Below the pieces are notes generated by a model. It was not told the origin of the DNA, did not search any database, and saw only the letters and a program-made list of their open reading frames with translations. The position numbers were made by a program, and so were the translations under genes. Positions 19,984-42,000 of a DNA stretch of 45,530 bases are shown here, one piece after another (the first letter of the stretch is position 1; each line of letters begins with the position of its first letter). The stretch comes from Candidatus Zixiibacteriota bacterium (GTDB lineage Bacteria > Zixibacteria > MSB-5A5 > WJJR01 > JAJRUJ01), in NCBI GenBank assembly GCA_024277855.1, contig JAJRUJ010000098.1, positions 1-45,530 on the forward strand, read 5' to 3'.

Positions 19984-20745
19984 TTAATCGATGATCGTTC
20001 CCAGCCGTTTCCAGCGGACCCGCGAGAAAAAATGGAACGAATTGTAGATAAACGAACGGCCCACCGAGATCGGGTCGGACCATTCCCAGTGCGGCGACTG
20101 CGGATCATCGCCCCATGACCAGTGGATTACCATCGCCTTGCCCATAATAAAATTACGCGGGACAAAACCCCAAAACCGGGAATCGTACGAGCGGTCGCGG
20201 TTGTCGCCCATCATGAAAAAATGCCCGGGCGGAACGGTCACCGGGCCATAGTTGTCGCGCGGCGAGCGTGACGCCGGGGCAAAACGGTTAGGGTCAACAA
20301 ATTTGACCCCCTTGTAGTTGTCGATACGGACATTATCAACAAAAACTACTTTATTGCGAATTTCCACGGTCTGGCCGCCGACTGCGATACAGCGTTTGAT
20401 ATAGTTGGTCGTGGAATCCCCGGGATATTTGAAAATGACCACATCGCCCGGTTCGGGATCGCGAATCGCCGGCAATTGCACATCGATCAACGGTAACCGT
20501 GAACCATAAAGGAATTTGTTGGCCAGCAAAAAATCACCAACCAGCAGAGTATCTTCCATTGATGTGCTGGGAATTTTGTAGGCCTCGACGATCGAGGTCT
20601 TGATAAAAAATGCCAGGACTAAGGCAATACCGAGCGATTTGGTATATTCCCAGAACAGGTTACCGTTCGGGGCTTTTTTCTTTTGTCCTTTCTTCCTCTG
20701 CTTTCCCACCTCAGCGCCGTTTCCCGCAACCACTGCGTTAGACAA
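19984..20745 (-). CDS. lepB: Signal peptidase I (second of a tandem pair)
   Basis: Cuts signal peptides from exported proteins at the periplasmic face of the inner membrane. 253 residues. A basic N-terminus and one membrane helix (about 36-50) precede the catalytic Ser62 in IPSTSMEDTL and general base K117 in NYIKRCIA, followed by GDNRDRSYDSRFWG. All S26 motifs are intact. The frame begins with TTG at 20745, overlapping the stop of the upstream paralogue by eight bases and preceded by GGGAA; an in-frame GTG at 20733 is the alternative. It is very similar to its neighbour through the catalytic region, for example STTNYIKRCIAVGGQTVE in both. Confidence 0.92.
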   Translation of the reverse strand: MSNAVVAGNGAEVGKQRKKGQKKKAPNGNLFWEYTKSLGIALVLAFFIKTSIVEAYKIPSTSMEDTLLVGDFLLANKFLYGSRLPLIDVQLPAIRDPEPGDVVIFKYPGDSTTNYIKRCIAVGGQTVEIRNKVVFVDNVRIDNYKGVKFVDPNRFAPASRSPRDNYGPVTVPPGHFFMMGDNRDRSYDSRFWGFVPRNFIMGKAMVIHWSWGDDPQSPHWEWSDPISVGRSFIYNSFHFFSRVRWKRLGTIID

Positions 20746-21481
20746 TCAATGTTCCCAGCCGCCCCCAGCGAACCCGGGAGAAAAAGTGGGCGGCGTTGTA
20801 GAAGACGGCTTTGCCCACCGACAGCGGATCAGACCATTCCCAGTTTGGGGCATTGGGGTCATCACCCCACGAACCGAGGATAATGATGGCTTTGGCCAGA
20901 ATCATCTTGCGGGGGACCGGCCCCCAAAAACGGGAATCGTATGAGTTGTCGCGATTGTCCCCCATCATGAAAAAATGATCTTGGGGAACGGTGTACGGCC
21001 CAAAATTATCCCGCCTGGTCACCGTACTCGGCAGGATGCGGTCCGCATCGGTATACTTGGCATGTTCCGGATTATCGAATACCACTCCGTCGACATAAAC
21101 GACCTTGTTCTTGATTTCCACGGTCTGGCCGCCGACCGCAATACAGCGCTTGATATAATTGGTTGTGGAATCCCCGGGATATTTGAAAACCACCACGTCA
21201 CCCGGTTCCGGATCGCGGATCGCCGGTAATTGCACGTCGAGCAGAGGCAGCCGGGCGCCATAAAGGAACTTGTTGCCAACCAGATAGTCATCGATCAGGA
21301 GTGTGTCCTCCATCGAGCCGCTGGGAATCCAATAGGCCTCGACAATCGACGTCTTGGCGATGAAAGCCAGGGCCAGCGCGATGGCGATCGTCTTGATCCA
21401 GTCGAAGAGACTGTCGCCATTCTTCGCCTGTTTTTTCTTCTTTGTTATTTTTGATTTCTTCTTTTTATTTTTGGCACTCAC
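20738..21481 (-). CDS. lepB: Signal peptidase I (first of a tandem pair)
   Basis: Membrane-bound S26 serine/lysine peptidase. 247 residues. The N-terminus is unusually lysine-rich (about 13 Lys in the first 20), then a single membrane helix (about 29-43). Catalytic S56 lies in IPSGSMEDTL and K111 in NYIKRCIA, with GDNRDNSYDSRFWG further on. The start is GTG at 21481, preceded by GGGGGA; no in-frame ATG gives a full protein. Its stop overlaps the second lepB. Both copies keep all catalytic residues, so they probably divide substrates rather than one being decayed. It follows rseP by 100 bases on the same strand. Confidence 0.93.
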   Translation of the reverse strand: MSAKNKKKKSKITKKKKQAKNGDSLFDWIKTIAIALALAFIAKTSIVEAYWIPSGSMEDTLLIDDYLVGNKFLYGARLPLLDVQLPAIRDPEPGDVVVFKYPGDSTTNYIKRCIAVGGQTVEIKNKVVYVDGVVFDNPEHAKYTDADRILPSTVTRRDNFGPYTVPQDHFFMMGDNRDNSYDSRFWGPVPRKMILAKAIIILGSWGDDPNAPNWEWSDPLSVGKAVFYNAAHFFSRVRWGRLGTLIV

Positions 21482-33393: not shown

Positions 33394-33837
33394 TTAGCGG
33401 ACAATAATCAACGAACGGAGTCGTTCCAGTTTGACCTCACCGATCCCGGCAACACCGGTCAACTCGGCAACCGATTCGAAGCCCCCATGACGGTTACGGT
33501 ATTCAATAATACGTGCGGCCAGCACCGGGCCGACACCGGGCAGCCGTAACAAATCGGGATAAGCGGCGGTATTAAGATCGAGCCGGCCGCCGACTGTCGT
33601 TGACACGGGTAATGATTCGGTCGGTTGGGCGGGGGCCGCCGGTCGGGCGGAATCTGCCGTAACGGCGGCCGGCACAACCGTAACTGCCTCCATCGTCACT
33701 GCCTCGGTTGGTCGGGTTTGCCGCAGATAAATAGTGATCGACAGCAGCGCCAACAATAACACCCCCAGCAAAGCCGCGGCCCTGGTCTCGCCCCGGGTAA
33801 ACCCGATCGGCCCGCCAAATGTCACCTTCGAGTTCAT
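33394..33837 (-). CDS. ComEA-like helix-hairpin-helix DNA-binding membrane protein
   Basis: 147 residues. One membrane helix (about 20-38) is followed by a Pro/Ala/Thr-rich linker (about 40-84) and a double helix-hairpin-helix domain: LDLNTAAYPDLLRLPGVGPVLAARII and ELTGVAGIGEVKLERLR. This is the plan of ComEA, the DNA receptor of natural transformation. No comEC or pilus gene is in the window, so uptake function is inferred. It starts eight bases after the stop of the M28 lipoprotein gene and belongs to the same operon. Confidence 0.88.
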   Translation of the reverse strand: MNSKVTFGGPIGFTRGETRAAALLGVLLLALLSITIYLRQTRPTEAVTMEAVTVVPAAVTADSARPAAPAQPTESLPVSTTVGGRLDLNTAAYPDLLRLPGVGPVLAARIIEYRNRHGGFESVAELTGVAGIGEVKLERLRSLIIVR

Positions 33838-33845
33838 CGTCTCTG

Positions 33846-34736
33846 CTACTTACTGTAGATTACCGTCGTGACTACGCGGCCAACCGCACCGAGCGAGGCC
33901 GCCGAGCATTTGTCCGGGGTATCAGCATGGGTGTGCCAGGGTGGATAATCAAAATCGATCAGGTCGACTGTCTCAATCCCTTTCCCCAACAGCGGGATAT
34001 GATCGTCCTGGATTGAATATTTCGCCCGCCGGTCGAATTCGGTCACCCCGATTTCTTCGGCAACCGCCCAAATCCGATCGACGACATCAGGCGCATACCG
34101 GGCCGAATATACCTCCGGTCCGACTTTCAAATCAGCATCACCGATCATATCCAGTAAAATGCCAAACTCATAGATTGACGGATCGACATTTCGGCTGAAA
34201 TAACGTGAGCCAAGTAAATACAAATCGATCCGACCCTGCGGGCCGTAATCCTCTCCGTCGAATAAGACAATATCAACCGGTTTCGGCGGCGGTTGTATCG
34301 ACAGGAGCCGGGCGATTTCCAATAAAACCGCGATGCCCGAGGCGCCGTCATTGGCCCCGAGAATCGGTTCATCGCGACGGCTCGTATCGGGGTCGTAGTC
34401 GGCGGTCGGCCGGCTGTCCCAGTGTGCGCAGAGGAGCCGTCGGCCATTTCCCTCGCCGAAGCGGGCAATGATATTGACCATCACGAGGTTTTTGGAACGC
34501 AGGGAGTCATAATATTCAAATTGCTGCTCAATCACGGTATCGGCGAGCGGGCGAAGGAATTCGACCAAATACTCACGGCAGCGCTCATGCGCTTCGCTCC
34601 CCGGTACGCGCGGCCCAAACGCACATTGTGCGATCAACTGCTCCATCGCCTTTTCGCCGTCGAATTCGGGCGGCGGACCGGCGCAACCCGACAGCGTGAT
34701 TATGGCAACGGCCGCAATTAAACTGCGAATACTCAT
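33846..34736 (-). CDS. M28-family lipoprotein, glutaminyl-peptide cyclotransferase-like
   Basis: A 296-residue lipoprotein with lipobox LSGC. The ATG at 34736 has GGGGGAG upstream. The zinc-site residues of clan MH are in order: H and D in CAHWDSRP, D in LGANDGASG, E in DGEDYG, D in DMIGDAD and H in HTHADTP. The CAHWDSRPTADYD context and single-zinc style resemble glutaminyl cyclases, which turn N-terminal Gln into pyroglutamate, more than aminopeptidases. This is a judgement from motifs, and an aminopeptidase cannot be excluded. It starts 101 bases after sprA on the same strand. In Bacteroidetes, such cyclases act on exported proteins after signal-peptide cleavage. Confidence 0.85.
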   Translation of the reverse strand: MSIRSLIAAVAIITLSGCAGPPPEFDGEKAMEQLIAQCAFGPRVPGSEAHERCREYLVEFLRPLADTVIEQQFEYYDSLRSKNLVMVNIIARFGEGNGRRLLCAHWDSRPTADYDPDTSRRDEPILGANDGASGIAVLLEIARLLSIQPPPKPVDIVLFDGEDYGPQGRIDLYLLGSRYFSRNVDPSIYEFGILLDMIGDADLKVGPEVYSARYAPDVVDRIWAVAEEIGVTEFDRRAKYSIQDDHIPLLGKGIETVDLIDFDYPPWHTHADTPDKCSAASLGAVGRVVTTVIYSK

Positions 34737-34837
34737 CAAGTCGTCTCCCCCCGCGATCATTTTGCCGCAATATACGACACGCCGCCGTACTCGCCAACCG
34801 GCGATCTGCCGGCAAACAGTTGAAAAGAAACACGCAC

Positions 34838-37800
34838 TTAGAAACTGAATTCGAGCCAGATGCTCACCTGGCGAACGTGGTTGGCCTGGCCGGTCTGGTT
34901 GTTTTTAGTGTCCTGCCAGTTCATCTGAAACCCGCCCTTCATCGAGGAAGAAAAACTGTAATTCGCGCGCGGCTCGATGGTGAACGTGCTGCGATCATCA
35001 GTGATGGTATAGGCCCCGTCAGTCGGCTTGGACTTTTTCTCCGAAAGACTGGCGGTATACTTGATCGCCAGACTCAGCGACAAGGTGCTTTTCAGCCGGA
35101 GGTTGCGTAAGAACGGGAGACGAACGCCGTTCGGCGCACGGAAAGAGTAGTTGGTGGAAAACCCGATGGTCCGTGACGATTTGCGCGAATCCAAATAATT
35201 CCCCAGGCCGAAATTGTTTTTCACCGAGCGATTGAGTGAAAAACTGTAATCACCGGTCAACCGCAAGCCGTTGCGGAAACTCTGCGACAGACGCAATGAC
35301 GCGCCGACTTTGTCCGCTTCTTCCTTAGTCTCGGGCAACCAGGACAGAACCGAATCACCATCGGCCGTCTGATATTTTTCCGTTTCATTGGTCGTATGCG
35401 AATAGTCGAGTTTGATCACCGAGATATCAAGTACCCAGCGAACCGGTTTAATCCATCCCAGTGGTTTGAAATTCGACAAATTGCGCAACGATGTCGAAAG
35501 TTTGGGAAAGGTCTCGCCGGCCCGTCGCGTGCTGGTCGTCGAATAATTGGTCGTCTTGCTCCGGTCGTAACCGGTGGTGACCTTGGCCAGCCCCAGGAGG
35601 TTGATCGCCGAGTTGAGCGAATATTTATCGGTGAGTGCTTCGCTGTCCCGATTATACGTGCTCGATCCACCGCTGGATCGGGCCACGTCTAGACTGTCGG
35701 TAAACCCCAGCCGATACAACAACGACGGCCGGGCCATCAGCCCGTAATTCGTGCGGTTTTCCGTGTGCGAAAAATTCCCCTTAAACGGTTCAAACGGGCT
35801 GGTCACCTGCCGCAACAGCCAGACAAACGGCGCGTGCGGTTTAAACGCGAAACCACCGGAGTCTTTTTTCTTTTCTTCCCTGGCCGGGGGGCCGGTCGAA
35901 TCGGGTGGAGCCCCCCGTTGTGCTTCCCGTTTGCGCCGTTTGTCTGCTGACGACGAGCGGCGACTCCGACCTTTTTTCGATACGCCGAGGAGTTTTCGCA
36001 GGTTCAATGTTGCACCGGTCGACAACCGCGAGGAAACCGCTCCCGACCGTGACCCGTCCCGGTAACGTTTCGGGTCGGCGTCTTCGGAATAGTCGCCGTT
36101 GTAGGTCAACGAGGGCGAGAGAAAACGGAGAACCGGCACCGAATACCGCAGGCCCAGACGCTGGGTAAACTTGATTTCCTGGCCGAATTTAAGATGGCGG
36201 GGATTAAAAGAAAACTGCAGTCGTTCCGGGTCATACAAGTCGCGTTCAGTAGAAAAGCCGTACGTTCCTCCGAGCACCGAAAACGGATCGAACGAAAAAT
36301 CCGCCTGGCCTTTAAACGTCCGGGTAAAACTCGGCACCAGGTAACCCAGGTTGTTGATCTTGGTTGAGCGCGTGCGCCGCAACTCACCACGGGCGGTAAA
36401 CTTCTTGGGCAACAACCTCAGCCGGGTGTCCCAGATCGACTTGGGGAAAAACAGGTACCTGGTCCAGGCCAAAGGCGAGATCGGCAACAGTGTCTTGTTT
36501 GAATATGAATAGTCACTACGCACATTGTACGTTTCCGAGAGGGAGGTCGTCCGCGGCGACCAGAGATTTTTGCGGGTAAGAGAACCGGAAAATTTTATCG
36601 CATTCACCGTCAACTTAGCGAGCCAGTGCTTTGTCGGCAGCGTCGCTTTCAACGAGGAGGAAAACCCGTAACTGATATTGGTCGTGGTCTCTTTTGCCAG
36701 CAGTTCGGGGGTCAACACAATATCCGACCCGGTGAGCAATTTCGGCTCGGAGACATCTTTGGAATATTTCAAGGTCAACGGGATGCTCACCCGCCAGGCC
36801 GCCGGCAAAAGCTTGCCGATTGAAAAGGAAGTATTGGCGCTGAGCCGGGTCCGGGTTGAACCATTAAGCAGGCTGGAGCCGGAGGCCGAATTGGCCCCGG
36901 TCAATCCGCGGAATGAATAAGTTTGGTATTCCGAATTGACTGCAAAACCCCAGAAATCGGCAAACTGAGCGTTTAACGATAACCGGGCGGCGGTACCGGC
37001 GTCATTGCGGACGTTATTGAGTTGTAATTCATTACACCAGATCTCGCCGGAGAACTTATCATAGAGTCCTTCATTATATGTTACACCGACGGCAAAATAT
37101 TGTATCTGCGTCAGGGTCGGATTACCGTGAATTTTATACTCGCCGGAATAGCGGTCGCCAAACTCATCAGCGGCAACCGTCTGTTTCAGCGGAGTTAATT
37201 CATCGAAATTAAACTTGATCGAGTTGCTGTCCCAGCCCGGGTAACAACGGATATGCTGCTCGTAATAATTGTTCTCATCCAGCCCCATGCGAAAAATAAA
37301 CGAGACGACCGCCGAATCCCGGAAGAGATACGAGGAGACCGGCGGATCGCCGACGAGGGCCGATTTGGTGTCGCCGTGGACAAACATCCGCATCGTTTCG
37401 TACCCGGTATAATCCTCCGCCCGCGTGAGTATTTTCACCGCCCAGCCGGTATCGCCCTCCTCAAAGTTTTCGAAACGCAGCAGGAGCGACTGTTCTCTTT
37501 CAGTGATATTGCTTTGTTTATTTTCTTCACCGACAACACCGCCCGGGTCGTAGTCGGTATTTTCCTCGGAATTGATCGCCTCGGCGCGAAATCGTTTGTC
37601 ATCGGCGACGATGTCGTCGGCCAGCGGCTGCGCCCGCCAGCGGTTTTCCACAATATGCATTTCGGCGATAACTATCTGGGTCATTTCGGTCAAACCATCG
37701 ACCCACAACCGCGCAAAACTGATCAGACTCGAATCACGATTTCCGGTTGTGTTTTCCAGATCCTCACTGTCACTCCAAAGTGGAATTCGATAGGTGCGAA

Positions 37801-40800
37801 ATACCAGCTTTTTTCCGGCGGCTGATTCGTGGCGGTCGGCGACACGGCGCGAACCCTCAACTTCAAAGGGGGATCCGCCGAGGTCAATGGCATAGGAGAA
37901 GTAGTTGTTGTTCTGATCGAGAAAATCGTTGTTATTCAGGTCTTCGGTGTCGGGCCGATACCCCGAACGATCGCCCTTGGAATTGCCTTCGGTGCCATTG
38001 ATGTTGTCGTAGACAAAGGGGTCGTCATCGGAATATTTCCAATCGTCGCCGTGGGGATCGGGGTTGCTTTCGGCATCGTAACCCTCTTCATCAACGGAAA
38101 ACACACCATCCAGACCCGTATCTTCACCTTCATCCAGGATGCCATTCTTAATCCGAATCCGCGTTCCATTCTCGTCATACACATCACGGTCTTCGGTGTC
38201 CAGAGAGCCGTCGCCGTCGATATCTTCGCTGATTTCCCCGAGATCAAGGTGCAACTTCCCTTCCACGTAGCCATACGTCCCCAACCGAATCTCGAGATAC
38301 TGCGCCCGGCTCTGGTCTTGCATGCCGGTCGAAAGCGCCCGCATGATCCCGTCCCATGAATTGGTTTCATGCGGCTGCATTTGCAGGTACAACACCTCCA
38401 TCCGCTGGTCCTGGGCATTCTTGGCCTGGCGGTCGTAGACATCGCTCACCAAAAAATCATGGTACGGGTTATACCAGATCAGGGTGTCGCGCGGCACATC
38501 GGTCATGCTCGTCGGGGGTGACGCCCTGGTCCAGGACTCCCGTAAAACGCCGAGGGAGGTAAGCAATTGAATTGCCTCAAAATCATCGACCAACACATAC
38601 CCGGCGGTATTGGGATTGGGCATCGAGCGGGCAATCTCACCGCTGATGCGCAAGTTCGACCGGGCGGAAGTTTCGACCAGCGGCAGCGCGTTGGCCAGGC
38701 GCGTCATCCAGGCCGGATTCGAGACCAGGGCAAAATCCACCTCGCCGACCAGGTCACGTGATGTTTCCTGGCCGAGTTTCGGTTTACGGTCGGACGATTT
38801 CTGCGATTTATAGAGAAACGTCGAACCGATATTAAATCCCGGTCCCGCGGCATACTCAGCCCGCGCACCGAGCAGGGTCTTGCGCTCGGCGCTGATAAAC
38901 GGGGCATATTCGAAATCAATCGTCAGGTCACCGGTCGGATCATTAAGTACCCGGTCACTGATGAAGGTAATCTGTCCCAGTTCATAGTCGATCTGGTAAT
39001 CGACATTACGGATCAGTTTTGCGGAATTGAAAGTGACCGTTTCTGAGTTTTGCAGGATATTGATTTTGCGCAATGAGTAAGTCGACGTCCGCCGGCTGGT
39101 CGTAATCTGGATATAATACTTGCTCTGTTCGGTCAGTTCTTTGGTCGTAGAGGTGGTGTATATCGCCGGAACCGTCTCGTCCAATACCGAATCCGGGGCA
39201 CTGGGCGCATATCCGACCGGCGGGTCGGGAGCGAATGGCTTATGGTTGGGAAACAGGATATGTCCGCGATAAAGGTCGAGCAAATAGTCAACATTGTCGA
39301 CCCGGTCGTCGGGGGCCTCCGCCCCGGCCGAATTGAATTTGTCCAGTCCCAACAGTTGCAGATAGGGCACACCGTTCTGATGATTGAGATTCGCGTTGTT
39401 CCGTTCGGTCCCGGCGGCGCCTTTGTAGATGTCGAGTTGGAACTCGTCGTATTTGAGACGCTTGGCCCCGAGGTTGTAAACATTTTTCCATTCATAATCC
39501 CAGGTTTCACTGGTATGTGTCCGCTTCGCCGGTTTGAGCATTTTCAAGGCCAGGGTGTCGCCGTTTCCGAGATTCCCGACTTCGACAATCCCCTGCGGCG
39601 TCCGGACTTTCATGTAGCAGGCCAGCAGTTCGTTGACCCGATGCTGACGTTCGAGCCGGATCCAGAACTGTCCTGGTTCGAGAAAGTAGTCCTTCCCGTC
39701 GATCATCTCGCGGACAAACGAGCCGGCGAATTCATGGCTGAACGCCTCCGGGTTATTCGGATCGATATAGAGGTTGGCATACGGGTCTTCCCCCGCCGAC
39801 TGCGAACTCCCCACACCGAACAATCGGAAATCGACGATCGAGTCGGTGGCCATATCGAATCCCAGTCCCAGCGAATCGGGGCCGATCTTGCCGACATCGT
39901 AATACGTTCGCTGCAGATAGGAATAATCACGGATAGTCACTACGTTTTCGGTGGCCCCGGCGGTAAACCGCGTTTTCTCGGTATTCCCTTTTTCCTGCGA
40001 GGCAATAACCGTCAAGTCGATATTGCCCAGCTTGGCGGTCGACTTGATCCCGAACAAGCCCTGGATTCGCTGTGAATAGCCGACAAATCGCGAGTTAGGC
40101 AGGTTCAATGTCGTATTCCCCAACTCGACTGACTGCAGGATATCGTCCTCGTCGCCCTTGTAGCGGATCTGGATTCGGTTGGACAGGTCGGATTCGCGCT
40201 TGGAGTCCTGATCAACCGAAACGAAAATCTTCGACCCGATGTTCCCTTTGATCGTGAAGCGCGAGGTCTGCTTCATATCCAGGGACGGGAATTTACTTTG
40301 CCGGAAAGTACCGGTGTTCTGCACTCCACCCTGCCAACGCGACGTCCCCGAGAACAGAATTTTCCGGTAACCATTGACTTTCAAACCCACCCCGCCTTCG
40401 CCGAGAATCGCCCGCACCGATTTGGGGACTTTGACAATCTCCCAGGACAGCCCTGAGCCATGTTTCTGGAACTGGGCCTTGGTCAGCGAAAGAGTGAGAT
40501 TTTTCCGCCAGCGGTCGATCACCCGCGCTTCATTCCGCTCCCGGTTGAACGTGACAATGTCCATCGCCAGCGGGGCGGAAACGGGTTGGTCATTGTAATA
40601 GGAGCGGATTTGCGCGTACCCGGTGTAGTAATTGATGACTACTTCGGAGCGCGGACCTTTACTCGGGTATTTTAATAACGGAATTCCGGAAGTGTCGGTG
40701 AAACAAAGACCGATTTCGTGAGTTTGTGGCTGGAATATCTCAATGGTACGGCCATGGTAATCCAGTGTCGCCACCATGCCGACCGAGTAGGCGCGGGAGG

Positions 40801-40915
40801 CAAACAACAGAAACAACACCGGTATCAAGCAGATAACCCGGCGCCACTGCAGCTTATGACTTGCTCCAATCAAATACTGCAAAAACCTCGCTCCCCCGGT
40901 TGGGGTTATTAACAC
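34838..40915 (-). CDS. sprA: Outer-membrane translocon protein SprA
   Basis: 2025 residues, close to SprA of the type IX secretion system, a very large beta-barrel that exports folded proteins across the outer membrane. An N-terminal signal (about 24-44, VICLIPVLFLLFASRAYS) is followed by SprA-type segments: SRFTIKGNIGSKIFVSVDQDSKRESDLSNRI is the longest, near 230-260, then IRYKGDEDDILQSVELGN. An Asp-rich, calcium-like repeat zone lies at about 890-1015 (DIDGDGSLDTED, DLNNNDFLDQNNN). The C-terminal half is amphipathic strands ending in Phe. A basic, low-complexity insert occurs near 1648-1685. The frame opens with GTG at 40915; a TTG eleven codons later has a better ribosome site (GGGGGAG). 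Somewhat shorter than Bacteroidetes SprA. No other T9SS gene is in the window. Confidence 0.92.
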   Translation of the reverse strand: MLITPTGGARFLQYLIGASHKLQWRRVICLIPVLFLLFASRAYSVGMVATLDYHGRTIEIFQPQTHEIGLCFTDTSGIPLLKYPSKGPRSEVVINYYTGYAQIRSYYNDQPVSAPLAMDIVTFNRERNEARVIDRWRKNLTLSLTKAQFQKHGSGLSWEIVKVPKSVRAILGEGGVGLKVNGYRKILFSGTSRWQGGVQNTGTFRQSKFPSLDMKQTSRFTIKGNIGSKIFVSVDQDSKRESDLSNRIQIRYKGDEDDILQSVELGNTTLNLPNSRFVGYSQRIQGLFGIKSTAKLGNIDLTVIASQEKGNTEKTRFTAGATENVVTIRDYSYLQRTYYDVGKIGPDSLGLGFDMATDSIVDFRLFGVGSSQSAGEDPYANLYIDPNNPEAFSHEFAGSFVREMIDGKDYFLEPGQFWIRLERQHRVNELLACYMKVRTPQGIVEVGNLGNGDTLALKMLKPAKRTHTSETWDYEWKNVYNLGAKRLKYDEFQLDIYKGAAGTERNNANLNHQNGVPYLQLLGLDKFNSAGAEAPDDRVDNVDYLLDLYRGHILFPNHKPFAPDPPVGYAPSAPDSVLDETVPAIYTTSTTKELTEQSKYYIQITTSRRTSTYSLRKINILQNSETVTFNSAKLIRNVDYQIDYELGQITFISDRVLNDPTGDLTIDFEYAPFISAERKTLLGARAEYAAGPGFNIGSTFLYKSQKSSDRKPKLGQETSRDLVGEVDFALVSNPAWMTRLANALPLVETSARSNLRISGEIARSMPNPNTAGYVLVDDFEAIQLLTSLGVLRESWTRASPPTSMTDVPRDTLIWYNPYHDFLVSDVYDRQAKNAQDQRMEVLYLQMQPHETNSWDGIMRALSTGMQDQSRAQYLEIRLGTYGYVEGKLHLDLGEISEDIDGDGSLDTEDRDVYDENGTRIRIKNGILDEGEDTGLDGVFSVDEEGYDAESNPDPHGDDWKYSDDDPFVYDNINGTEGNSKGDRSGYRPDTEDLNNNDFLDQNNNYFSYAIDLGGSPFEVEGSRRVADRHESAAGKKLVFRTYRIPLWSDSEDLENTTGNRDSSLISFARLWVDGLTEMTQIVIAEMHIVENRWRAQPLADDIVADDKRFRAEAINSEENTDYDPGGVVGEENKQSNITEREQSLLLRFENFEEGDTGWAVKILTRAEDYTGYETMRMFVHGDTKSALVGDPPVSSYLFRDSAVVSFIFRMGLDENNYYEQHIRCYPGWDSNSIKFNFDELTPLKQTVAADEFGDRYSGEYKIHGNPTLTQIQYFAVGVTYNEGLYDKFSGEIWCNELQLNNVRNDAGTAARLSLNAQFADFWGFAVNSEYQTYSFRGLTGANSASGSSLLNGSTRTRLSANTSFSIGKLLPAAWRVSIPLTLKYSKDVSEPKLLTGSDIVLTPELLAKETTTNISYGFSSSLKATLPTKHWLAKLTVNAIKFSGSLTRKNLWSPRTTSLSETYNVRSDYSYSNKTLLPISPLAWTRYLFFPKSIWDTRLRLLPKKFTARGELRRTRSTKINNLGYLVPSFTRTFKGQADFSFDPFSVLGGTYGFSTERDLYDPERLQFSFNPRHLKFGQEIKFTQRLGLRYSVPVLRFLSPSLTYNGDYSEDADPKRYRDGSRSGAVSSRLSTGATLNLRKLLGVSKKGRSRRSSSADKRRKREAQRGAPPDSTGPPAREEKKKDSGGFAFKPHAPFVWLLRQVTSPFEPFKGNFSHTENRTNYGLMARPSLLYRLGFTDSLDVARSSGGSSTYNRDSEALTDKYSLNSAINLLGLAKVTTGYDRSKTTNYSTTSTRRAGETFPKLSTSLRNLSNFKPLGWIKPVRWVLDISVIKLDYSHTTNETEKYQTADGDSVLSWLPETKEEADKVGASLRLSQSFRNGLRLTGDYSFSLNRSVKNNFGLGNYLDSRKSSRTIGFSTNYSFRAPNGVRLPFLRNLRLKSTLSLSLAIKYTASLSEKKSKPTDGAYTITDDRSTFTIEPRANYSFSSSMKGGFQMNWQDTKNNQTGQANHVRQVSIWLEFSF

Positions 40916-41076: not shown

Positions 41077-42000
41077 TTACATACCCAAGAAACGAACTTC
41101 TTCTTCCAATTCAACCCCAAATTTATCAAAAACGGCAACTTTCATCTTCTCGGCCAAAGCCAGGACATCGGCCGCCGAAGCCCCGCCGAGGTTGACAATC
41201 ACGTTGGCGTGCCGATCACTAACCGCCGCCTGCCCCACGGTAAATGATTTTGCCCCGGCCTCTTCCAGAAGCCGCCCCGCGGCGATTTTGCCGTACGGAG
41301 CGGAGGGGTCCTCGATATTCTTAAAATAGCTCCCGGCACAGATGTCTCCCGGCGGTAATTTGGCGTCTCGCCGGGCAATGATCTCATCCGCGCTTTTACG
41401 CAGAACAGCCGAGTCAGCCGGGCTGAGAATCAGACGAATATCCAACACAATTTCACCCGAGGTTTTTAGCCGGCTGGTCCGATAGGCGAAACCCAGTTGC
41501 TCGCCGGACAGATCGATGGTCCGGCTATCGGTGTCGAGCACTCGTACACCTTCGAGGACATCGGCGATCGACTGTCCGTACGCCCCCGCATTGCCGACTA
41601 CCGCCCCACCGATTGATCCGGGGATTCCGGCCAGCTTTTCCAGTCCCGCCAGCCCCTCGGCAACGGCAAAATCAACCAAGTCGTTCAGATGCGCCCCAGC
41701 TTCGGCAGTGATCCGTTTGCCGTCACGCGCAAGAGAACGGCACCGGTTGACGATTACCAACCCCTTGATCCCCCGGTCACCGATTAAGAGATTACTCCCC
41801 TCGCCGAGGATAGTGGTCTTGATACCGGCCGCGCGGGCGGAGCCGATCAACTCGGCCAGATCATCGGTCGATTCGATCTCGGCCAACAGTTGCGCCGGGC
41901 CGCCGATCCCAAAAGTCGTATACTCAGCCAGCGGGACATCCCGCCGGATACGTGTTGCAAACTTCCCGGGCAGCTGCCCGACTTCGACTTCGGCGGTCAT
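41077..42000 (-). CDS. murB: UDP-N-acetylenolpyruvoylglucosamine reductase
   Basis: Reduces UDP-GlcNAc-enolpyruvate to UDP-MurNAc with NADPH and FAD in peptidoglycan synthesis. 307 residues. FAD-binding motifs are YTTFGIGGPAQ (27-37), GEGSNLL (67-73) and AGIPGSIGGAVVGNAGAYG (124-142). The catalytic Ser is S224 in AGSYFKN, and the catalytic Glu is in the terminal EEEVRFLG. Complete. It lies 161 bases upstream of sprA on the same strand; cotranscription is possible but unproven. Other mur genes are not nearby. Confidence 0.96.
   Translation of the reverse strand: MTAEVEVGQLPGKFATRIRRDVPLAEYTTFGIGGPAQLLAEIESTDDLAELIGSARAAGIKTTILGEGSNLLIGDRGIKGLVIVNRCRSLARDGKRITAEAGAHLNDLVDFAVAEGLAGLEKLAGIPGSIGGAVVGNAGAYGQSIADVLEGVRVLDTDSRTIDLSGEQLGFAYRTSRLKTSGEIVLDIRLILSPADSAVLRKSADEIIARRDAKLPPGDICAGSYFKNIEDPSAPYGKIAAGRLLEEAGAKSFTVGQAAVSDRHANVIVNLGGASAADVLALAEKMKVAVFDKFGVELEEEVRFLGM

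What the first reader, a model, noticed from the sequence alone, without database searches (positions are those of the whole stretch)
33846..40915. sprA followed by a glutaminyl-cyclase-like lipoprotein: possible pyroglutamate pathway
In Bacteroidetes many signal-peptidase I products start with Gln and are cyclised (the Q-rule). Here a lipoprotein with glutaminyl-cyclase-type motifs directly follows sprA, and the genome region also has two signal peptidases. This suggests an export and N-terminal capping pathway. Against it, the exported proteins visible in this window do not show a clear Gln at +1.
Basis: inference. Interest (0 to 1): 0.55.

Follow-up and report, generated by a model that had tools for sequence, protein, structure and literature searches.

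The report
Pyroglutamate-forming enzyme coupled to secretion gene
Right behind the gene for the outer-membrane pore of a bacterial export machine sits the gene of an enzyme that probably caps exported proteins at their first amino acid; the two genes stay together, often touching, in several distantly related phyla, which hints at an overlooked link between export and capping.

Summary
Confirmed: ORF 33846-34760 (-) is a lipoprotein of the type II glutaminyl cyclase (QC) branch of the M28 family, directly behind sprA (34838-40915, -). It is nearest to solved Bacteroides, Porphyromonas and Tannerella QCs (35-41% identity, Z 37-44), keeps their Asp-Gly, Glu-Asp, Asp and Trp-His signature, and separates fully from the three other M28 proteins of its own genome, very probably a Zixibacterium, which has 37 T9SS cargo tails over cut-off.

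Not confirmed as stated: a Q-rule pathway. By one home-made method Gln stands at +1 in 11 of 74 predicted signal-peptidase substrates (27% of the genome sampled), 24 of 43 in Bacteroidota, 1 of 18 in E. coli. QC-less Zixibacteria show the same weak preference (7 of 32 against 9 of 39).

New: the sprA-QC pair is shown in 79 of 95 QC-bearing Zixibacteria and in 40 of 69 testable named loci (Marinimicrobia, Calditrichota, KSB1, Gemmatimonadota and others), mostly with abutting or overlapping ends, while flanking genes change. In 33 QC-bearing Bacteroidota genomes none is adjacent. Best reading: a QC co-expressed with the T9SS translocon, capping a limited client set. Activity and clients are untested.

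The parts
33846..34760 (-). type II glutaminyl-cyclase-like lipoprotein (304 aa from the first ATG; probable start 34736). Signature: D138-G139, E170-D171, D204, D253, W275-H276 (numbering from the first ATG)
34838..40915 (-). sprA, T9SS outer-membrane translocon (2025 aa)
34761..34837 (-). 77-bp gap between the sprA stop and the first ATG of QC; in relatives -32 to 204 bp
33394..33837 (-). ComEA-like helix-hairpin-helix protein directly downstream; a neighbour in part of the phylum only
41077..42000 (-). murB upstream of sprA; not part of the conserved pair outside the phylum
19984..20745 (-). signal peptidase I (S26), one of a tandem pair
20738..21481 (-). signal peptidase I (S26), the other of the pair

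Best explanation
The protein is a membrane-anchored, periplasm-facing type II glutaminyl cyclase. It turns an N-terminal Gln, exposed when signal peptidase I cuts, into pyroglutamate with one bound zinc, and so shields the N-terminus from aminopeptidases. Unlike in Bacteroidota, where QC serves most of the secretome from its own locus, here it is co-expressed with the T9SS translocon SprA. Its important clients are probably a limited set tied to that system (SprA itself in many species, cargo or partner outer-membrane proteins), not the whole secretome. Shown: family, predicted fold, catalytic residues, gene pair and its conservation, weak +1 Gln excess. Inferred: activity, zinc number, location, clients and the purpose of the coupling.
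For: Enzyme: phmmer 3gux E 9e-52, TfQC 1.5e-50, PgQC 1.8e-45; mammalian QCs and one aminopeptidase about 2e-8. AlphaFold2 model pLDDT 93.7; Z 44.4 to 4fuu over 277 residues at 1.4 A, Z 42.8 to PgQC; best aminopeptidase Z 32. Asp-Gly and Glu-Asp as in PgQC (PMC7948796, passages), against Asp-Asn in all three other M28 proteins of this genome and Glu-Glu in two of them, which split off with support 100/100. Gene pair: 95 of 118 Zixibacteria have QC, 117 of 118 SprA; the pair is shown in 79 of 95 (75 of the other 94, the window, and three seen as SprA ends). Of 80 named loci 69 have at least 1.5 kb upstream; 40 of these have sprA directly upstream on the same strand. Gaps of the 40: -32 to 204 bp, 30 of them at most 9 bp. 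Other neighbours are not kept: comEA near in 2 of the 40, rsmD 2, murB 1. T9SS parts besides SprA: 37 CTD tails and 6 PorV-family matches over cut-off. Clients: SprA itself has Gln at the likeliest +1 in 8 of 20 proteins that gave a call.
Against: The window's own SprA shows no Gln at +1. CTD cargo of this genome has +1 Gln weight 3.2 of 14, too few to differ from 7.5 of 82 others. QC-less Zixibacteria have the same +1 Gln level (7 of 32 against 9 of 39) and keep sprA (G021 and G101 have sprA followed at once by comEA), so the T9SS does not need this QC. QC without adjacent sprA occurs in 29 of 69 loci; of 38 genomes without the pair in view that were searched, 19 lack SprA over the cut-off. 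The window's nearest relative G028 has QC away from sprA. PgTrp193 has no Trp counterpart here (a Tyr).
Confidence: 0.52

Rival explanations
1. A QC of general use (any N-terminal Gln in the periplasm); its place behind sprA is an old arrangement kept for dosage or by chance, without functional tie to T9SS.
For: QC of this family occurs in genomes without SprA over cut-off (19 of 38), and Bacteroidota QC is unlinked in all 33. Exposed Gln is not confined to cargo.
Against: Flanks have been reshuffled across phyla while the pair, often with overlapping ends, is kept.
Confidence: 0.3
2. One reading: a Q-rule secretome as in Bacteroidetes, with signal peptidase and QC as partners.
For: Gln is among the commonest +1 residues (11 of 74, tied with Ala and Gly; binomial p 5e-4 against Gln in the following stretch), and the commonest in three relatives (9 of 39).
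Against: 15% here against 56% in Bacteroidota, Fisher p 6e-6; not distinguishable from E. coli 1 of 18, p 0.45. No drop without QC.
Confidence: 0.08
3. An M28 aminopeptidase, not a cyclase.
For: Same fold: aminopeptidase BSAP scores Z 32, as high as animal QCs; Pfam names only Peptidase_M28.
Against: The closest solved relatives are QCs, and the residues that set QCs apart (Asp-Gly, Glu-Asp, Trp-His) are kept; the three other M28 proteins of its genome fall on another branch.
Confidence: 0.07

Closest known systems
Bacteroidal type II QC (PgQC PG2157, TfQC, BtQC 4fuu/7d1d)
   Same: Predicted fold, catalytic signature, lipoprotein signal, 35-41% identity
   Different: Shorter loop before the Trp-His pair and Tyr in place of PgTrp193 (alignments); the gene sits behind sprA, while PgQC heads an operon with PG_2158 and hemG (PMC10653852, passages)
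Type II QCs of other phyla (7d1b Fimbriiglobus ruber, 7d18 Acidobacteriales bacterium)
   Same: QC outside Bacteroidota is already known from solved structures
   Different: 33% and 26-28% identity; their gene context was not examined
Bacteroidetes Q-rule pathway (Bochtler 2018, Szczesniak 2023)
   Same: Signal peptidase I, lipoprotein QC and T9SS in one cell
   Different: Most predicted SPI substrates lack +1 Gln here
M28 zinc aminopeptidases (BSAP, Streptomyces griseus aminopeptidase)
   Same: Same fold, Z 31-32
   Different: Asp-Asn or Asp-Asp in place of Asp-Gly (PMC7948796); the paralogues in this genome lie on a different branch

Membership tests
Type II glutaminyl cyclase | M28 fold, closest to QCs | tested here: met
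   (predicted model)
Type II glutaminyl cyclase | Catalytic and metal residues (HsQC D159, E201, E or D202, D248, H330, W329) | tested here: met
   D138, E170, D171, D204, H276, W275
Type II glutaminyl cyclase | Separates from aminopeptidases in a tree | tested here: met
   M28 paralogues of the same genome split off 100/100; no wide sampling of aminopeptidases
Type II glutaminyl cyclase | One zinc ion and Gln-cyclising activity | not testable with these tools
   needs purified protein
Bacteroidal QC subgroup | Trp at the PgTrp193 position (a subgroup feature, not one of type II QCs in general) | tested here: not met
   Tyr in DLYLLGSRYF; alignments
Bacteroidetes Q-rule pathway | Gln at +1 in most SPI substrates | tested here: not met
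   11 of 74; Bacteroidota 24 of 43 by the same method
T9SS | SprA translocon over cut-off | tested here: met
T9SS | CTD cargo and PorV family in the genome | tested here: met
   37 of 41 CTD hits over cut-off; 6 of 18 PorV-family hits
T9SS | GldK/L/M/N motor and ring | not tested
   no search was made

The most novel reading that the evidence does not exclude
The sprA-QC pair is the ancestral state in the wider FCB group: QC began as a maturation factor of the T9SS, capping SprA or its cargo, and the Bacteroidota Q-rule is a later spread of that capping to the whole secretome after QC left the sprA locus.
Probability: 0.22. Interest if true: 0.75.

Novelty: new variant of a known kind. Interest (0 to 1): 0.52.

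Why it matters
Why Bacteroidetes cap most exported proteins with pyroglutamate, and why Q-rule and T9SS occur together, is open in print; the 2018 paper found no control of T9SS by the cap and the 2023 paper calls the rule exclusive to Bacteroidetes. A QC gene that abuts or overlaps sprA in phyla without a full Q-rule gives a place to look for the first role of the enzyme, and makes it testable which proteins it was made for.

Tried and rejected
Natural experiment: Zixibacteria without QC were expected to lose +1 Gln if QC keeps it there. They do not (7 of 32 against 9 of 39). Some genomes without type II QC have type I QC (PF05096: 7 of 118, six of them strong; G022, G058 and G097 lack type II), but the QC-less genomes sampled for +1 (G106, G027, G101, G021, G056, G085, G087) are not among the seven. 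One 'absence', G102, is a contig end with a QC fragment.

A first +1 count on QC-centred loci gave Marinimicrobia 11 of 37; after SprA, QC and homologous copies were dropped it fell to 2 of 14, so no claim is made there. One search stopped with an error at Gemmatimonadota, which had no predicted substrate. Two earlier versions of the predictor gave similar orders of genomes. The predictor is my own, uses nothing at or after +1, and is weaker than SignalP.

The 80 named loci were found with patterns that contain the Asp-Gly and Glu-Asp motifs, so the constancy of those motifs there is partly built in; the genome-search loci were not so selected (one Bacteroidota row has Asp-Ala). Only the best 80 of 589 confirmed loci were kept by the tool. 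Adjacency was not a criterion of either search.

Prior print: searches, 82 of the held library. Four papers hold both 'glutaminyl cyclase' and 'T9SS'. Of these I read abstract and named sections of PMC5837995, abstract and passages of PMC10653852, passages of PMC7948796, and the listing only of PMC12702893. None of what I saw mentions a sprA-QC gene pair. Most subscription journals and all bioRxiv preprints are not held.

Full report
What is there. On the - strand, sprA (34838-40915) is followed after 77 bp by a 304-aa M28 protein (33846-34760) with a lipobox. The window is contig C88 of a 3.07-Mb genome rated 100% complete. Its phylum is very probably Zixibacteria: a QC hit in G093, a relative of the same class with one contig of 3.8 Mb, lies at 2510338-2511204 (query 14-303), and locus L058 of CP070813.1, a Ca. 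Zixiibacteriota chromosome of 3.83 Mb, has its hit at 2510335-2511201 (query 13-302). This is a match of coordinates, not a named record for the window.

The enzyme. Among solved structures the nearest by sequence are bacteroidal QCs (3gux, 6qro, 3tc8, 4fuu, 6qql; E 9e-52 to 2e-45); mammalian QCs and the first aminopeptidase come at about 2e-8. A 34-row profile keeps the bacteroidal QCs far ahead, while animal QCs and the best aminopeptidases overlap below them. The model (pLDDT 93.7) matches BtQC at Z 44.4 and 1.4 A over 277 residues and PgQC at Z 42.8; animal QCs and aminopeptidases both stand at Z 31-33, so fold alone does not tell those two apart. In PgQC the zinc ligands are Asp149, Asp183 and His299, with Gly150 and Trp298 as further marks against aminopeptidases (PMC7948796, passages). 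The window protein has Asp138-Gly139, Glu170-Asp171, Asp204, Asp253 and Trp275-His276, invariant in all 20 rows of A1 (20 of the 30 loci fetched). The three other M28 proteins of this genome read Asp-Asn at the first motif; two read Glu-Glu at the second and the third has lost it. In a tree of 109 rows they split off with 100/100 support.

The gene pair in the phylum. QC is found in 95 of 118 Zixibacteria (G102 adds a fragment) and SprA in 117 of 118. A script over the two tables, without the window's own genome, found sprA on the same contig and strand within 4 kb upstream in 75 of 94 (a 76th, G066, is 1 Mb away and not counted). Sequence shows the end of sprA upstream also in G063, G068 and G076, so with the window the pair is shown in 79 of 95. 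It is absent in G028, G036, G044 and G066; the other 12 are contig ends or unlisted rows. In the 30 loci read, the window's own included, SprA is directly upstream in 26, gaps -1 to 166 bp.

The gene pair beyond it. One scan of named genomes gave 80 loci. Of 69 with at least 1.5 kb upstream, 40 have sprA directly upstream on the same strand, and 29 do not (11 are too short to tell). By record title the linked ones are Marinimicrobia 23 of 23, Zixibacteria 3 of 3, KSB1 2 of 2, Calditrichota 4 of 6, Gemmatimonadota 2 of 3, Bacteroidota-titled 1 of 4 and untitled bacteria 5 of 8; Poribacteria (0 of 6), Armatimonadota (0 of 4), Bacillota, Acidobacteriota, Aminicenantes, Kryptonia, Fibrobacterota, Ignavibacteriota, Cloacimonadota and Glassbacteria have none. 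In the 40, the distance from sprA stop to QC start runs from -32 to 204 bp, and is at most 9 bp in 30 (starts chosen by rule). The window's other neighbours are near QC in few of the 40: comEA 2, rsmD 2, murB 1 (38 have room downstream, 22 upstream of sprA). So the pair outlives its surroundings. In the phylum of L053 (titled Bacteroidetes) 33 of 99 genomes have this QC and 77 of 99 SprA; reading the two tables against each other by eye, none of the 33 is adjacent and the nearest are about 19 and 23 kb apart. On the tree the linkage label needs about 12 changes against 36 for shuffled labels: clustered, but neither one gain nor one loss.

Is there a T9SS? The genome has 41 CTD hits, 37 over cut-off, and 18 PorV-family hits, 6 over cut-off. 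Of 17 genomes with the pair, 16 have CTD matches. The motor was not tested. Several abstracts in the listings call T9SS specific to Bacteroidetes; Bochtler 2018 already doubted that.

Is there a Q-rule? A home-made predictor picks the cut from charge, core, -3/-1 and distance only. After removal of homologous copies and of SprA/QC, Gln is at the likeliest +1 in 11 of 74 (G000; 92 before removal), 9 of 39 (three QC-bearing relatives; 52 before), 7 of 32 (seven QC-less relatives; 37 before), 24 of 43 (four Bacteroidota genomes; 47 before) and 1 of 18 (300 kb of E. coli; 19 before). Against Gln in the following stretch the G000 excess has p 5e-4; against E. coli p 0.45; against Bacteroidota p 6e-6. 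Printed values for Bacteroidetes are above 48% in 332 of 334 species, and values outside are a continuum (PMC5837995, section read). So there is a weak preference at most, and it does not follow presence of QC.

Reading. The enzyme is most likely a QC with a small client set. SprA itself begins with Gln at the likeliest cut in 8 of 20 proteins that gave a call, which would make enzyme and client one coupled gene pair, but the window's SprA does not, related rows are not independent, and in this genome cargo (3.2 of 14) and other proteins (7.5 of 82) cannot be told apart. In P. gingivalis QC is essential and stabilises exported proteins (PMC10653852, abstract and passages); the same protection for a few T9SS proteins would explain co-expression here. 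That step is inference.

Verdict. Observation right, enzyme call right, pathway reading only partly right. The conserved sprA-QC pair outside Bacteroidota is the part worth following.

Noticed in passing
G022:C6:86643-88174; G020, G044, G058, G062, G097: Type I (plant-type) QC genes in a few Zixibacteria, in tandem in G022; three of the six strong carriers lack the type II enzyme.
   Followed up: partly
L253 (G021), L259 (G101): sprA is followed at once by comEA, as if QC had been removed cleanly from sprA-QC-comEA.
   Followed up: partly
L255, L256, L261, L262: In four QC-less Zixibacteria sprA is followed by genes that look like selA-selB (read by eye, not searched).
   Followed up: no
G123:C1:1478797-1482453, G141:C65:13645-17424: Poribacteria have long frames with weak SprA matches below cut-off, perhaps a distant SprA relative.
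   Followed up: no
L063, L066, L106: Some Marinimicrobia QCs seem to start with a plain signal peptide and Gln at +1 in place of a lipobox (by eye).
   Followed up: no
window 19984-21481: Tandem signal peptidase I genes that abut or overlap; two further S26 genes elsewhere in the genome.
   Followed up: no
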